Positions 3,432 through 14,065 of a stretch of DNA of 29,569 bases are shown one piece after another. Origin of the DNA: a virus. The stretch spans positions 1 through 29,569 of the IMG/VR virus record IMGVR_UViG_3300045999_002124; one strand, written 5' to 3'. A model generated the notes under the pieces. The model saw only the letters and a list, made by a program, of their open reading frames with translations, did no database searches and was not told the origin of the DNA. A program made the position numbers and the translations under genes. The first letter of the stretch is position 1. Each line of letters starts with the position of its first letter.

Positions 3432-4794
3432 GCGCCTGATGGATCCGATACGCCCAGCCAGGAGCGTAACCGCGTTCTTTGGCGAGGGCGAGTAGTTGGG
3501 GCAGGGTGCGGGCTGCCTGGCGTTGCCGTTTGGCGTGATCGCGTTCTGCGATGCGCTGTTGCACTGATTCGCGCTTCAGTTCTTTCAGCTCGCCCATGAG
3601 CTGCTGAATCTTGCGCGATTTGATCGGCGCACACTGCGCACCGCACACCGGGCAGATCGGCGCGGGCTTGAATGCTGCGTAGCACTCTGGGCATGTGCGG
3701 ACTGATGGGGCTGGTGTGCCGCGGCCACCGCGGACGATGCCTTCGGCCAGGCTCCACTCGCGCGGATCATCCGGGAATCCATGGCGGGTGACATTACCAA
3801 CGTGATCCAGGATCAGTGCTGCATCCTTGCCGGGAGCCGGGCGCAGCACGCGGCCCACCTGCTGTAGGTAGAGGCCGAGCGATTGCGTGGGCCTGAGCAG
3901 GATCGCGCAGCTAGCGGCTGGCACATCGAAGCCCTCGCTCACCACATCCACGGTCACGAGCACACGCACGATGCCAGCGGCGAAATCAGCCACCACCTGA
4001 TCGCGGGCGTCAGTGCCACCCAGCAGCAGCGCTGCGCTGATCTTGGCCGTCTTAAATGCGTCGCACACTGAGACGGCATGAGCGACATTGCAACAGAACG
4101 CGATGGCCTGCTGTCCTGCAGCCAGGCGCTGATAGTGGGCGATGGCGTCACCCGTGACTGTGGGCCGATCCATGGCAGCTGCAGCCTGATCGTTGGCGTA
4201 ATCACCAGCGCGGCGCTTAACCGCCGATAGATCAGCCACGACAGGCGGCGCATAGATCCGCGCGGCAGATAAGAAGCCCCAAGAGGTGAGATCAGCCACC
4301 GATGGACCGAGCACCAGTTGATCGAACGCCTCGCTTAGGCCGCGGCCATCTAGGCGGCATGGCGTGGCTGTGACGCCTAGGCGATAGGCATCAAACCAGT
4401 GGTTGAGGATCTGCCGCCAGCTGCCAGCTGCTGCGTGGTGCGCTTCATCGATAATCACCAGCGATGGCTTCCATGCCATGCGGGATAGGCGCCGCACGAG
4501 CGTCTGCACGGATGCGATCTGCACCGCGTGATCGGATGCGGGATGGCCTGCGGCGATGGTGCCGTGCTCGAGGCCAGCCCATGCGAGCTTGCTGCTGGTC
4601 TGGTGGATCAGCTCACGGCGATGCACAAGGATCAGCACCTGCCGGCCACGTGCTGCAGCTTGCGCGGCGATGCTGGTCAGGATCACGGTCTTGCCGCCAC
4701 CAGTCGGGAGACATAGCAGCGGTGCCTTGGCGCCCTGCTGCATGGCGGAGCGCAGATCGCTGATCGCTAGCTGCTGGTAATCCCGCAGATTCAT
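3418..4794 (-). CDS. DEAH-box superfamily 2 helicase with zinc ribbon, 458 aa
   Basis: ATP-dependent DNA helicase/translocase of superfamily 2 for phage replication or repair. Motifs in order, counted from the chosen start: PTGGGKT (30-36, Walker A), DEAH (116-119), TATP (142-145), TVDVVSEGFDVP (281-292), and QQVGRVLRP (311-319, motif VI with the arginine finger). A zinc ribbon follows (C368, C371, C381, C384), then a basic coiled tail (KELKRESVQQRIAER). The start is the ATG at 4794, giving MNLRDYQ, which is how such helicases normally begin and which overlaps the previous stop as ATGA. The frame is open for 53 more codons upstream, but that stretch reads as out-of-frame sequence of the preceding gene. 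Its 3' end overlaps the VRR-NUC start. Confidence 0.92.
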   Translation of the reverse strand: MNLRDYQQLAISDLRSAMQQGAKAPLLCLPTGGGKTVILTSIAAQAAARGRQVLILVHRRELIHQTSSKLAWAGLEHGTIAAGHPASDHAVQIASVQTLVRRLSRMAWKPSLVIIDEAHHAAAGSWRQILNHWFDAYRLGVTATPCRLDGRGLSEAFDQLVLGPSVADLTSWGFLSAARIYAPPVVADLSAVKRRAGDYANDQAAAAMDRPTVTGDAIAHYQRLAAGQQAIAFCCNVAHAVSVCDAFKTAKISAALLLGGTDARDQVVADFAAGIVRVLVTVDVVSEGFDVPAASCAILLRPTQSLGLYLQQVGRVLRPAPGKDAALILDHVGNVTRHGFPDDPREWSLAEGIVRGGRGTPAPSVRTCPECYAAFKPAPICPVCGAQCAPIKSRKIQQLMGELKELKRESVQQRIAERDHAKRQRQAARTLPQLLALAKERGYAPGWAYRIHQARGKC

Positions 4795-5123
4795 AGCGGC
4801 AGTTCCAGCTGGGTACCGTCTGCGGGTGCACCATGCATGGCGATCTGAGCCATCGTCACAGCGCGGCGCTGCTGATCGTATGCAGGTCGTGCAAAGCCGA
4901 GCTGGTACAGGTGCAGATCGTTCTGCAGCAATGACACGGCTACTGCACGCCACGATGGCGCACGGCCGGATGCTGCCACCTTGGCTGGCACTTCATCGGG
5001 AATCTCGTGCGAATAACAACGGGCTTGCCACGTCCGCACGTATTCCGAGACTCGCTCTGTAGCGCACCTCCCAGGACTGAATGGCTCTGTCTGCTTGGCG
5101 GTTCGCCAGAATCCGTTGCTCAT
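4791..5123 (-). CDS. Small protein resembling the C-terminal module of IbrA/DUF3440, up to 110 aa
   Basis: No function is known. The segment APSWRAVAVSLLQND then YQLGF, then QQRR matches the C-terminal part of the IbrA-like protein two genes upstream (SWKRFAITVLKND, KYLGL, then QQRR) in order and spacing to within one residue. It also has HEIPDEVP, a phrase I associate with the DUF3440 C-terminal region. It may be a detached or duplicated module of that protein. The ATG at 5123 would make it overlap the previous gene by 131 bases, and its first 28 residues look out of frame. A GTG at 5039 (VRTWQARCYS) is an alternative start, though no good ribosome site precedes it. The stop overlaps the helicase ATG as ATGA. 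Confidence 0.65.
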   Translation of the reverse strand: MSNGFWRTAKQTEPFSPGRCATERVSEYVRTWQARCYSHEIPDEVPAKVAASGRAPSWRAVAVSLLQNDLHLYQLGFARPAYDQQRRAVTMAQIAMHGAPADGTQLELPL

Positions 5124-5418
5124 CGGTCAATAGCCCCCAGGCTTGTCGTGTAATGTCTTCAGGGCATCGCAAGGCGAGAGCACAGGCTGCGTGCCCAATC
5201 CATGCTTTGCGGTTCAGGTTGTAGTCAGTCAATGCATTGATGCAACTGTTGGGCCACTCCACGGTGACCCGTTGCATATAGCGCCCGTAAAGGCGGTGAT
5301 TACCGGTGAAGATCACGGCCCTTTGCAGGAAGAGGCGGCGATTGGCCACCTCGCCCCACATGTTGAAACCGATCTCTTCCCAGGTTTCAATGGGCAACCA
5401 GATCCTCTTCAGCTTCAC
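4993..5418 (-). CDS. Conserved-looking phage protein of unknown function, 141 aa
   Basis: I do not recognise a named family. The protein begins MKLKRIWLPIETWEEIGFNM and contains GNHRLYGRYMQRV, EWPNSCINALTDYNLNRKAW and LTDEQRILANRQADRAI. It is rich in Trp, Tyr and Arg, has no membrane segment, and looks soluble. A TTG at 5424 is possible, but GTG at 5418 is the better start because GGAGG lies at 5428-5432 with a 9-base spacer. The start lies inside the 3' end of the EctC/ParB fusion gene (overlap 32 bases), so it is probably coupled to it. Its 3' end overlaps the next gene by up to 131 bases, which is unusually long here. Its position ties it to the IbrA/IbrB-like pair. Confidence 0.8.
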   Translation of the reverse strand: MKLKRIWLPIETWEEIGFNMWGEVANRRLFLQRAVIFTGNHRLYGRYMQRVTVEWPNSCINALTDYNLNRKAWIGHAACALALRCPEDITRQAWGLLTDEQRILANRQADRAIQSWEVRYRASLGIRADVASPLLFARDSR

Positions 5419-6328
5419 GTTCAAGATCCTCCGTCACGCTGTCAATCTGCTCAACATCCCATGCTTTACTGAAATCCTTGCCAAGGAACAGAGACGCAAG
5501 GCCGGTCACCTGCTTAAGGCGCAGCAGTTCATCAGGACTCATGCCGATGTGCTTGCAGATCCATGCGTCGCCCTTGCCCATCTCGATCAGCTCGGCAACG
5601 ATCACGCTCATCAGTTCGATGTTGTGCGAACCACGGGCGCGGTTGTGACGGATGGTTGACGCCATTCGGTCGTGCAGCTCTTTGCGAAGCACAACCACGG
5701 GCAAGCGTCCGCCTTCGCGTTCGCGTATTCGCTGGCTGTTCTTCAGCGTCAAATATCGGTGAAAACCGTCAACGACCACATATAGGTCACGTTCGGCATC
5801 ATGCACGACAACGACAGGTTGTGTGTAGCCGTCTTCCCAAATCGATGTTTCGAGTAGTGCCATTTCAGGCGGCGCCACAGAGTTGGGGTTGTAATCGTTG
5901 GCGGTAACTTTCTCGATAGGAATACTGCGGACAGAGTAGACCGGGGATCGCCAAGGGTAAGAATCGTTCTCATCGTGCAGTTCGTCGCCTTTAAGGGGTG
6001 GATTGAAAACACAGATCAATGTTGTAGGCTCTAACGCTTCAAACGTGTGGGCATCGTGCTTGTCGAGCACGTATGTCACATCAGGGCCAATGTCTGTAAT
6101 TTCCTGTGTTGCCTCGTTAATCAGCACGCCTTTGCCGCTAACGCAGTAACAGGTTTCAAGGTGGTGCTGATAGTGCCAACGATGCGGCTTGCCGGGGTGA
6201 ATGACGGTTTTGGTCATGCTGTAGCCCATGCCGTCGGTTTCAACGACAAGCCGATGGCTGGTGAAACCACCACGCGGGCATTGCACAACGCGGTCATCAG
6301 GGAGCCGAGCGGCGTTCAGGATCTTCAT
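5387..6328 (-). CDS. Ectoine-synthase-like cupin fused to an IbrB/ParB-like domain, 313 aa
   Basis: Two domains. Residues 1-125 match the EctC (L-ectoine synthase) cupin: DGMGYSMTKTVIHPG, HYQHHLETCYCVSGKG, TYVLDKHDAHTF, and VFNPPLKGDELHDE then YP. Relative to my memory of Paenibacillus lautus EctC, all positions shift by one. The iron ligands correspond to E58, Y86 and H94, and R26, T41, Y53, H56, F108, E116 and H118 are kept; W21 is F22 here. Residues 130-300 are ParB/IbrB-like: SIPIEKVTANDYNPNSVAPP, the VDGFHRY motif (187-191), RHNRARGSHN (227-236), and a KorB-like helix-turn-helix (about 240-282). The ATG at 6328 overlaps the IbrA-like stop as ATGA. EctC normally cyclises N-gamma-acetyl-diaminobutyrate. 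The substrate here is unknown, since no EctA or EctB is visible. Confidence 0.85.
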   Translation of the reverse strand: MKILNAARLPDDRVVQCPRGGFTSHRLVVETDGMGYSMTKTVIHPGKPHRWHYQHHLETCYCVSGKGVLINEATQEITDIGPDVTYVLDKHDAHTFEALEPTTLICVFNPPLKGDELHDENDSYPWRSPVYSVRSIPIEKVTANDYNPNSVAPPEMALLETSIWEDGYTQPVVVVHDAERDLYVVVDGFHRYLTLKNSQRIREREGGRLPVVVLRKELHDRMASTIRHNRARGSHNIELMSVIVAELIEMGKGDAWICKHIGMSPDELLRLKQVTGLASLFLGKDFSKAWDVEQIDSVTEDLEREAEEDLVAH

Positions 6329-7641
6329 TTGGAGGAACGGTTGAGAACTTGGCTGTACTTGCGTTGGATTGATCTTTGGCGGCGCTGCTGTTCTTGCGTT
6401 GGCGCCAGGCCAAGGTATTTGCAGGTGTGATCGTTCTTAAGCACGGTGATAGCAAACCGTTTCCAGGACGTGACCATGCTGTTGTGGCATGGCAGGTCAT
6501 CCAGATGATCAGGAGGAACCTTGATCACGACACGGCGCAGATTGTTGCCACCGTGACGCGTTGTGCCATTGATATAGAAGCGAATGCCAATACGGCCGAG
6601 AGCTTCAATGATGGATTCAGGAAGACCGCGCCCCACCCTGCCCCAGTAACGGATTGACTGAATGAAGCGCTGCTTAAAATTTGCGCTTGATTGATCGGGC
6701 AGCGTTGCCAGCAAGAACTTGACAAACGATTTCCACGTATGGCCAGCCGGCAGCCTGAAGGATTTGTAATCAAGCTGTTTGCCATATGTGGCCATGAAGT
6801 TGGCACCGCCGACCCTGGCGCAAAGTCTGGCCCAGATCTGCGGGTCGATTACCCGATACATGGCGAGGCTGGATTTGGACTCTGACATAAACGGCGAGGC
6901 AACCCGCATCTTTTTAATGGGGATACCAGCCATGTAGAACACGTCATAAAGCTTGTTGTAATCCCAACCAAACTTGGCGTTAGCGGTCCAGATGTCCTCT
7001 GTGCGCCAGTCATAGATCGGATAGCAGTTGTAGGTATGCGCCGTGTTTTTTTTGGTCCACATGCGGCCGAGCATGGTTTCCTTGTCTTGGTTCAGGATCG
7101 CCCTAAACCGGTTCAGTGATTCAACGGTGCGGATACCGATCAAGTTGGCGCAGGGCTCGCCTTGGCTGTACCACTCCGCAAACATGTCCCAGAAGGTGGC
7201 GTAGTCCATGTTTTCAATGAACAGATCGCCAAAGGGATGGTTCTGCAGGTTAACGATGTAATCCTGCTGCGGCATGGGGCGAATCCAGCGGTGGCGATCA
7301 GCCTCGCCCCAGCATTGCCAGTCAATCTCGTAAGAGCTGACGGTGCATGGCAGGGTGATGGGCAGACAGCACCAGTAGATGTCGAGGATGTCTCGATTGG
7401 CTTCGAGAATGCGATGCATAAACTCCTCGCTGTGGTTGTAGTTGGCTTCGTTGTCCATGATCTGGACGCCAACCTTGACCGGCAGCTGCCGCTCTCGTAT
7501 GTAGTCGCAAACGAGATTTAAGAGAACGCCGCTGTCCTTGCCGCCAGAGAAGGAGACGTAGACGCGCGTGAAGTGGGCAAAGATGAAATCAAGCCGCTCT
7601 ATAGCGGCGTCGTAGACGGATTGTTCGAGGTACTGGCGCAT
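6325..7641 (-). CDS. ibrA-like: IbrA-like PP-loop ATPase (PAPS-reductase family, DUF3440), 438 aa
   Basis: A member of the PAPS reductase/adenine nucleotide alpha hydrolase superfamily, of the DUF3440 type known as IbrA in E. coli prophages. The PP-loop reads YVSFSGGKDSGVLLNLV (SGGKDS at 32-37). After it come the family phrases VGVQIMDNEANYNHSEEFM, YWCCLPITLPCTVS, LIGIRTVESLNRF, CYPIYDWRTEDIW and PIKKMRVASPF. The C-terminal part (about 390-438) has SWKRFAITVLKND and QQRR, repeated in the small protein at 4791-5123. The proteins use ATP to activate a substrate; the true reaction of IbrA is not established. It is the first gene of the leftward operon, starting at ATG 7641 beside the divergent repeat region, and is coupled to the EctC/IbrB fusion. 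IbrA and IbrB normally occur as a pair. Confidence 0.88.
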   Translation of the reverse strand: MRQYLEQSVYDAAIERLDFIFAHFTRVYVSFSGGKDSGVLLNLVCDYIRERQLPVKVGVQIMDNEANYNHSEEFMHRILEANRDILDIYWCCLPITLPCTVSSYEIDWQCWGEADRHRWIRPMPQQDYIVNLQNHPFGDLFIENMDYATFWDMFAEWYSQGEPCANLIGIRTVESLNRFRAILNQDKETMLGRMWTKKNTAHTYNCYPIYDWRTEDIWTANAKFGWDYNKLYDVFYMAGIPIKKMRVASPFMSESKSSLAMYRVIDPQIWARLCARVGGANFMATYGKQLDYKSFRLPAGHTWKSFVKFLLATLPDQSSANFKQRFIQSIRYWGRVGRGLPESIIEALGRIGIRFYINGTTRHGGNNLRRVVIKVPPDHLDDLPCHNSMVTSWKRFAITVLKNDHTCKYLGLAPTQEQQRRQRSIQRKYSQVLNRSSK

Positions 7642-13549: not shown

Positions 13550-14065
13550 CTAGCCCTTGGATGCGGTGACGCCAAGGTCTGCGTTGTAGCGGCCAACCTC
13601 CGCGTAGCTGCGCTCCACGGTGCCGCTGACCAGCAGGAACTTCATTTGCCCAATGCGCAGCCCAGGCCAAATCGGCAGTGGATGCAACCGGCGTTGATTG
13701 CGCAGTTCCATGGTGAGCCTGCTGCCAAACCAACCGGGATCTGCCCAGCCGGCCTCAGCATGATCCCAGCCCTCGCGTGCGCGGCTTGACTTGAGCACGA
13801 ACTGCGCGCCGACGTGATTGGGCAAGTTGAAGATCTCCTGCGTTTCAGCCAGGAAGAATTCACCCGGCTGGATCCAGAACGGATCGTCTTGAGTGTGACC
13901 ATGCAACTGCACTTTCTGCAGCTCAATGGTGTTGGCCACCTCCATCATGATCTGCGTGCCCAGCGTCACGTCATAACTGGCTGGGTTTAGCTGCTCCTCG
14001 TTGTATGGCTGCAGCATTGAATGCTGTTGGCACAGCCGGCGAATCTCGTGATCAGGTAGCAGCAC
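13550..14065 (-). CDS. dcd-like: dCTP deaminase / dUTPase-superfamily protein, 171 aa
   Basis: Converts dCTP to dUTP (or, in bifunctional forms, to dUMP), raising the supply of thymidylate precursors. Motifs: LNPASYDVTLG (26-36), KSSRAREGWDH (92-102) for phosphate contacts, AGWADPGWFGSRLTMELRN (105-123) with the catalytic-type E120, and LPIWPGLRIGQMKF (130-143). The length is close to the bacterial enzyme but slightly short. The start is GTG at 14065, six bases after the endolysin stop. It is the last gene of the late operon, an odd place for a nucleotide enzyme. Confidence 0.87.
   Translation of the reverse strand: MLLPDHEIRRLCQQHSMLQPYNEEQLNPASYDVTLGTQIMMEVANTIELQKVQLHGHTQDDPFWIQPGEFFLAETQEIFNLPNHVGAQFVLKSSRAREGWDHAEAGWADPGWFGSRLTMELRNQRRLHPLPIWPGLRIGQMKFLLVSGTVERSYAEVGRYNADLGVTASKG

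What the first reader, a model, noticed from the sequence alone, without database searches (positions are those of the whole stretch)
5387..6328. Ectoine-synthase-like cupin fused to an IbrB/ParB domain in a phage
Residues 1-125 follow EctC almost site by site. With a constant +1 shift against my recollection of P. lautus EctC numbering, the iron ligands (E57, Y85, H93 become E58, Y86, H94) and R25, T40, Y52, H55, F107, E115 and H117 are all present; only W21 (F here) and N38 (T here) differ. The remainder is a ParB/IbrB domain with VDGFHR and RHNRARG motifs. Keeping an active site inside a DNA-linked ParB fusion, with no EctA/EctB nearby, suggests the cupin acts on or senses a small molecule in a phage system rather than making an osmoprotectant.
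Basis: partly seen in the sequence, partly recalled or inferred. Interest (0 to 1): 0.88.

Follow-up and report, generated by a model that had tools for sequence, protein, structure and literature searches.

The report
Ectoine-synthase-like cupin wired into phage IbrA/IbrB
A phage protein joins a relative of ectoine synthase, an enzyme that normally makes a salt-protectant, to a ParB-type DNA-linked protein; it is one part of a conserved five-gene phage block that keeps the enzyme's metal site but lacks the ectoine pathway, so it probably does different chemistry, and automatic calls of viral 'ectoine synthase' deserve rechecking.

Summary
The minus-strand ORF 5387-6328 (313 aa) is an EctC-type cupin (residues 1-126) fused to an IbrB/ParB-like domain (about 130-313). 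EctC is by far the nearest family by profile, by solved-structure sequence and by predicted fold. The metal triad E58/Y86/H94 is invariant in all relatives examined. The fusion is not new to databases: Mycobacterium phage Gaia gp104 is already annotated 'ectoine synthase/ParB multidomain protein'.

New here: the cupin belongs to a conserved block IbrA > cupin-IbrB > gene4 > gene5, followed by a helicase. In other phages the cupin is a separate gene, gene4 is fused to IbrB, IbrA is fused to IbrB, or the order is permuted. The cupins form their own clade apart from ectoine-operon and orphan EctC. In every one, the conserved EctC tryptophan (Pl Trp-21) is Phe. Cupin-linked IbrAs form one clade with an invariant CC-x6-C motif. 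A reverse search with that motif found the cupin beside all but one contig with enough sequence. No EctB was found in 25 records.

Best reading: an active metal enzyme with changed substrate, working with IbrA and IbrB, perhaps on nucleic acid. It is not an osmoprotectant maker. Chemistry and target are inferred, not shown.

The parts
5387..6328 (-). Fusion protein: EctC-like cupin + IbrB/ParB-like domain, 313 aa
5951..6328 (-). EctC-like cupin domain (residues 1-126); metal ligands E58 (6155-6157), Y86 (6071-6073), H94 (6047-6049); F22 in place of Trp-21, T39 in place of Asn-38
   Evidence: PF06339 125.5 bits; ectoine synthase structures are fold hits 1-8, rmsd 0.7-0.9 A to several of them; ligands invariant in 80 and 31 relatives
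5390..5941 (-). IbrB-like part: ParB_N domain with DGFHR and RHNRARG motifs, then a helical C-terminal region
   Evidence: helices in the model
6325..7641 (-). IbrA: PP-loop ATPase/PAPS-reductase-like + DUF3440, 438 aa; its stop overlaps the fusion's start (ATGA)
   Evidence: fusion plus IbrA in 147 of 151 viral loci, the rest at contig ends
7531..7548 (-). PP-loop SGGKDS of IbrA (residues 32-37)
7336..7377 (-). IbrA signature YWCCLPITLPCTVS (residues 89-102), invariant CC-x6-C in cupin-linked IbrA
   Evidence: 24 of 24 cupin-linked IbrA, variable in 34 others; reverse search
4993..5424 (-). gene4: all-helical protein without known relatives; fused to the C-terminus of IbrB in another phage lineage (start codon uncertain)
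4791..5123 (-). gene5: 110 aa, related to the C-terminal tail of DUF3440/IbrA
   Evidence: homolog in L546 scores DUF3440 25.7 bits
3418..4953 (-). RadD/ResIII-type helicase following the block (start codon uncertain; the ORF overlaps gene5)

Best explanation
The cupin is an ectoine-synthase-derived, metal-dependent enzyme recruited once into a phage IbrA-IbrB complex. It keeps the Lewis-acid metal site and most of the amino-acid/amide-binding pocket but has a changed substrate, because the Trp 'piston' is always Phe and the carboxylate-binding Asn is usually Thr. It works with a specialised IbrA (PP-loop ATPase with a CC-x6-C motif), with IbrB (ParB/sulfiredoxin-fold, probably nucleotide- and DNA-binding) and with the helical gene4 protein. 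The most likely role is a step in building or removing a modification on nucleic acid or a nucleotide: the cupin makes or breaks an amide/amidine-type bond on an amino-acid-like group that IbrA activates with ATP. Shown here: EctC descent, predicted fold, conserved pocket, obligate partners, co-inheritance. Inferred: catalysis, complex formation, substrate, and the nucleic-acid target.
For: EctC is the nearest family by HMM, PDB sequence and Foldseek (ranks 1-8 all ectoine synthases, E 6e-14 to 1e-12; next cupins 2e-8), with cupin pLDDT about 93-98 over most of the barrel. Metal triad, Thr-40, Tyr-52, Arg-25 and Ser-23 equivalents are invariant in 31 divergent IbrB-linked cupins. 9 of 11 EctC ligand positions are among the 28 invariant columns of 126 (hypergeometric 1.7e-5), although the cupin diverges faster than the ParB domain (56% against 79% identity in far relatives). 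Partners: IbrA and IbrB+cupin in 28 of 28 chosen diverse loci, gene4 in 23. Separate but coupled cupin and IbrB ORFs, gene4-IbrB fusions in 31 of 80 loci of another lineage, one IbrA-IbrB single ORF, and permuted orders that keep all parts together. Cupin-linked IbrA is one clade at 100/100 with the signature columns removed. Signature-first search: 80 IbrA, 66 with the cupin, 13 at contig ends, 1 exception; three of the contigs checked further do hold the cupin. Precedent: PP-loop enzymes with ParB-superfamily partners in DNA phosphorothioation (PMC10853773), and ParB-like DpdB with DpdA (PMC12839542). EctC also cyclises glutamine (PMC5924519).
Against: No activity or complex was measured. 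A conserved pocket is also expected of a ligand sensor. Nothing here shows modified nucleic acid. In one phage contig (L546) a 1-Cys peroxiredoxin fills the cupin's slot, which does not fit cyclisation chemistry easily. The only IbrAB phenotype met in the literature read is activation of prophage eib genes (title of Sandt 2002, cited in PMC10434257), which points to regulation. The co-inheritance reflects one origin, so it is not a set of independent events.
Confidence: 0.45

Rival explanations
1. Sensor: the cupin binds a metal-coordinated small metabolite without turnover and gates IbrB's DNA binding or the IbrA/IbrB activity, so that IbrAB acts as a metabolite-tuned regulator of phage or host genes.
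For: Fusion of a small-molecule-binding domain to a ParB-type protein; loss of the Trp that is needed for EctC activity (W21A keeps 9.7%, PMC6344544); IbrAB is known as an activator of prophage eib genes (title cited in PMC10434257).
Against: Metal triad and the proton-relay Thr stay invariant at large divergence. The cupin is often a separate gene and its presence goes with a change in IbrA's PP-loop region rather than only with IbrB.
Confidence: 0.25
2. Auxiliary metabolic gene: a working ectoine synthase that helps the infected host cope with salt.
For: Passes the Pfam and NCBIfam ectoine synthase cut-offs; one 2026 paper reads a viral 'ectoine synthase' this way (PMC13079714; whether that gene is a member of this family was not tested).
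Against: No EctB in 25 records, while the control search does ring on generic relatives. Trp-21, conserved in 437 operon and 145 orphan EctC proteins (PMC6344544), is absent in all 31 members. The cupin clade is separate from operon EctC and always tied to IbrA/IbrB.
Confidence: 0.06
3. Redox or sulfur chemistry: IbrA's CC-x6-C is a cysteine/metal site for sulfur transfer, IbrB acts like sulfiredoxin, and the iron cupin (or, once, a peroxiredoxin) handles oxidised or sulfur-carrying intermediates.
For: Invariant extra cysteines in cupin-linked IbrA; peroxiredoxin in the cupin slot of L546; weak DndC similarity of IbrA; ParB/sulfiredoxin kinship (PMC11662687).
Against: The cupin has the EctC Glu/Tyr/His triad and pocket, not a thiol dioxygenase site; the peroxiredoxin case is a single 8 kb contig.
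Confidence: 0.14
4. The cupin is a structural or dimerisation module that kept its pocket by inertia.
For: EctC is a head-to-tail dimer (PMC5924519).
Against: Pocket positions are far more conserved than the rest of the domain.
Confidence: 0.1

Closest known systems
Ectoine synthase EctC (PF06339; structures 5bxx, 5by5, 5onm-5ono)
   Same: Cupin fold (rmsd 0.7-0.9 A to several 5bxx chains), E/Y/H metal triad, most substrate-contact residues, lid residues
   Different: Phe in place of Trp-21, usually Thr in place of Asn-38; no ectoine operon; always tied to IbrA/IbrB; own clade
Orphan (solitary) EctC proteins of bacteria
   Same: No ectA/ectB partner, variable residue at the Asn-38 position, unknown substrate
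   Different: Orphans keep the Trp (in one of two registers) and are not next to IbrA/IbrB
IbrA/IbrB pair (DUF3440 PP-loop protein + ParB-like protein; E. coli ibrAB, ybdN/ybdM)
   Same: Gene pair, PP-loop SGGKDS, DGFHR and RHNRARG motifs
   Different: Ordinary pairs lack the cupin and the CC-x6-C motif; many also lack gene4/gene5
Mycobacterium phage Gaia gp104 'ectoine synthase/ParB multidomain protein' (KJ567043)
   Same: Same fusion, same IbrA before it, gene4 and gene5 after it
   Different: Annotation only; an extra gene lies between the fusion and gene4
DndB/DndC and DpdA/DpdB nucleic-acid modification systems
   Same: PP-loop enzyme or base-exchange enzyme working with a ParB-superfamily protein
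   Different: IbrA is only weakly similar to DndC (E 5e-7); no cysteine desulfurase, DndD/E, or queuine-type transglycosylase in the block

Membership tests
Ectoine synthase (EctC) | Profile match above curated cut-off | tested here: met
   PF06339 125.5 against 27; NCBIfam 133 against 128
Ectoine synthase (EctC) | Cupin fold nearest to EctC structures | tested here: met
   Foldseek ranks 1-8
Ectoine synthase (EctC) | Iron ligands Glu/Tyr/His | tested here: met
   E58, Y86, H94 in 80 of 80 and 31 of 31
Ectoine synthase (EctC) | Catalytic Trp-21 | tested here: not met
   Phe in all 31, at either register
Ectoine synthase (EctC) | Asn-38 contacting the carboxylate | tested here: not met
   Thr here; Thr, His, Cys or Met in the family; in my operon set Asn 18, His 10
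Ectoine synthase (EctC) | EctA/EctB pathway present | tested here: not met
   No EctB in 25 records; EctA not searched by itself; the records may be fragments
Ectoine synthase (EctC) | Ectoine formation | not testable with these tools
   needs purified protein
IbrB / phage ParB-like family | ParB_N domain with DGFHR and RHNRARG motifs | tested here: met
   PHROG 2159 1.3e-77; invariant motifs
IbrB / phage ParB-like family | Gene next to IbrA (DUF3440) | tested here: met
   6325..7641, 4 bp overlap
IbrB / phage ParB-like family | DNA or nucleotide binding | not testable with these tools
   inferred from fold matches to ParB/Noc/KorB
DNA phosphorothioation (Dnd/Ssp) | DndC-type PP-loop protein plus DndD/DndE or Ssp partners | tested here: not met
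   Only weak DndC hits for IbrA and no Dnd hits for the other block proteins in PADLOC

The most novel reading that the evidence does not exclude
The block is an undescribed phage pathway that puts a new modification on nucleic acid or a nucleotide, in which an ectoine-synthase-derived metal cupin supplies amide/amidine chemistry to an ATP-driven IbrA and a DNA-bound IbrB.
Probability: 0.27. Interest if true: 0.85.

Novelty: new variant of a known kind. Interest (0 to 1): 0.6.

Why it matters
IbrA/IbrB pairs are common in phages and plasmids, yet no biochemical role for them was found in the literature searched. A variant with a recognisable enzyme attached, with known residues to mutate and isolated phages that carry it (Gaia, Nebkiss, XCL1123), makes that question testable. 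It also gives a lead on orphan EctC chemistry, and it is a caution: all 25 checked records pass Pfam's ectoine synthase cut-off, so viral 'ectoine synthase' genes read as salt-stress helpers may in part be this IbrB partner.

Tried and rejected
Ectoine-making auxiliary gene: rejected on missing EctB, Phe for Trp and a separate clade. Other cupin family: rejected. Frameshift or assembly artefact for the split forms: rejected, since split ORFs with their own start codons recur in several contigs and in phage XCL1123. A stand-alone phage EctC in MT835761: rejected, an EctB-like aminotransferase lies just upstream and the record is marked UNVERIFIED, so it looks like bacterial ectoine operon DNA. 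Gene4: no useful Pfam, PHROG or PDB-fold relative; one viral model of the same family. IbrA: no solved relative by sequence. PADLOC: no defence-system hit for the fusion. Asn-38 to Thr as a special mark: dropped, orphan EctC proteins vary there too. Literature searches for IbrA/IbrB, DUF3440 and ectoine synthase with ParB found no functional study of the fusion; subscription papers are not covered.

Full report
What is there. The named interval holds a minus-strand ORF of 313 codons, 5387..6328. Its first 126 residues match the ectoine synthase family far above the Pfam cut-off and just above the NCBIfam one, and the rest matches phage ParB-like proteins. Its start overlaps the stop of IbrA, 6325..7641, in an ATGA. 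The window is phage DNA: tail, endolysin, exonuclease VIII, RecT-like, prim-pol and helicase genes surround it.

Is it EctC? The only strong PDB sequence matches are the solved ectoine synthases. A model built from an alignment of 72 sequences has pLDDT near 93-98 over most of the barrel. Its eight best PDB fold matches are all ectoine synthases, with rmsd 0.7-0.9 A to several of them and E values about ten-thousand-fold or more better than the next cupin. The overall pTM of 0.49 means that the relative placing of the two domains is not reliable.

The pocket. In the P. [quoted passage not shown] The triad is invariant in 80 viral relatives and in 31 divergent members including split forms. Nine of eleven ligand positions are among the 28 invariant columns (p = 1.7e-5), although the domain as a whole diverges faster than the ParB part. 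The exception is telling. The paper reports Trp-21 in all 437 operon EctC and 145 orphan EctC proteins, in some orphans shifted by two positions. My set shows the same Trp in two registers (positions 22 and 19 in window numbering), and in all 31 IbrB-linked cupins it is Phe, again in either register. So the metal chemistry is kept while the part that pushes the substrate is altered.

Ancestry. With 79 bacterial EctC-type sequences (28 with an EctB gene in the fetched stretch, 51 without), the IbrB-linked cupins form one side of a 100/100 branch, and still do (100/98) with seven further split forms. The alignment is short and the tree unrooted, the bacterial sample is biased by the search patterns towards a few families, and 'orphan' means only that no EctB lay within the fetched flanks.

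The block. Two viral scans gave 151 loci, many of them the same contigs seen twice. 147 hold fusion plus IbrA; the other four are cut by contig ends. The usual order is IbrA > cupin-IbrB > gene4 > gene5, often followed by a RadD-like helicase. Gene5 resembles the C-terminal tail of DUF3440 proteins. In isolated phages, gene4 and the cupin are both found in Gaia, Nebkiss and XCL1123. The fusion itself is already annotated in Gaia and XCL1123.

Physical linkage. The cupin is a separate, overlapping or adjacent ORF in XCL1123, in two bacterial MAG contigs (Planctomycetota, Saprospiraceae; possibly prophages, not established) and in several viral contigs. Gene4 is fused to the C-terminus of IbrB in 31 of 80 loci of a cupin-less lineage. 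In one faecal phage contig IbrA and IbrB are one ORF. In others the order is permuted but the parts stay together: cupin-IbrB first and IbrA last in L493 and L507, cupin > IbrB > gene4 > gene5 > IbrA in L522, and IbrB > gene4 > gene5 > IbrA > cupin in L599. IbrB looks like the hub of a complex; this is inference from gene fusion, not a binding result.

IbrA co-variation. Twenty-four diverse cupin-linked IbrA proteins all carry [YH]WCC[LM]P[IV][TS]LPC, residues 89-99 in the window protein, downstream of the PP-loop (SGGKDS, residues 32-37); 34 others vary there. A tree without those columns puts the 24 in one clade at 100/100 on a long branch. Three contigs whose stretch was too short or out of order (L514, L558, L560) do contain the cupin. 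This is one shared history, not 66 independent events, but through it the cupin has almost never been lost or exchanged.

The exception. In L546 (IMGVR_UViG_3300049489_000692) a 1-Cys peroxiredoxin (AhpC-TSA 2.6e-24) lies exactly between IbrA and IbrB, with gene4 and gene5 following. It is one contig of 8 kb; I treat it as a lead for the redox rival.

Mechanism. EctC uses its metal to activate an amide for attack by an amine, and can also cyclise glutamine (PMC6344544, PMC5924519). PP-loop enzymes activate carbonyl or phosphate groups with ATP (general knowledge). PP-loop and ParB-superfamily proteins occur together in DNA phosphorothioation (PMC10853773), and a ParB-like ATPase, DpdB, serves deazaguanine insertion in DNA (PMC12839542). 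In phage phiFN37, IbrA/IbrB lies a few genes from another ParB-like gene followed by a queuine-type transglycosylase. Together these make a nucleic-acid or nucleotide modification role the most likely, but nothing here shows a modified product. Sensor, redox and structural readings remain open, at the stated probabilities.

Consequence for annotation. All 25 records checked pass the Pfam ectoine synthase cut-off, and none has EctB. A 2026 study reads viral 'ectoine synthase' as salt adaptation (PMC13079714). Whether its gene belongs to this family I could not test.

Verdict. The fusion was already annotated, but its conserved five-part setting, the Phe-for-Trp change and the matching IbrA signature were not found described in the literature searched.

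Noticed in passing
L546:3868-4617 (IMGVR_UViG_3300049489_000692): A 1-Cys peroxiredoxin gene occupies the cupin's place between IbrA and IbrB in an otherwise typical block.
   Followed up: partly
L245:218-1840 (MT836384, faecal phage contig): IbrA and IbrB form a single 541-residue ORF.
   Followed up: partly
L336, L342, L343 and about 28 further loci: Gene4 is fused to the C-terminus of IbrB in a cupin-less phage lineage; gene4 is helical with no PDB fold match.
   Followed up: partly
L238 (MT835761, labelled Bacteriophage sp., UNVERIFIED): Carries an EctB-like aminotransferase directly before a canonical EctC: probably bacterial DNA labelled as phage.
   Followed up: partly
L242:2716-8492 (Fusobacterium phage phiFN37): IbrA/IbrB followed by a helicase and, further on, a second ParB-like gene beside a queuine tRNA-ribosyltransferase gene.
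   Followed up: no
L237 (Pseudomonas phage Amjad_SA), L240 (Microcystis phage Mwe-JY13): IbrB > gene4 > IbrA order without cupin; the C-terminal tail of IbrA there resembles gene5.
   Followed up: partly
window 13550..14065 -: dCTP deaminase gene (TIGR02274 above its cut-off) next to a lysozyme/peptidase M15 endolysin gene, away from other nucleotide genes.
   Followed up: no
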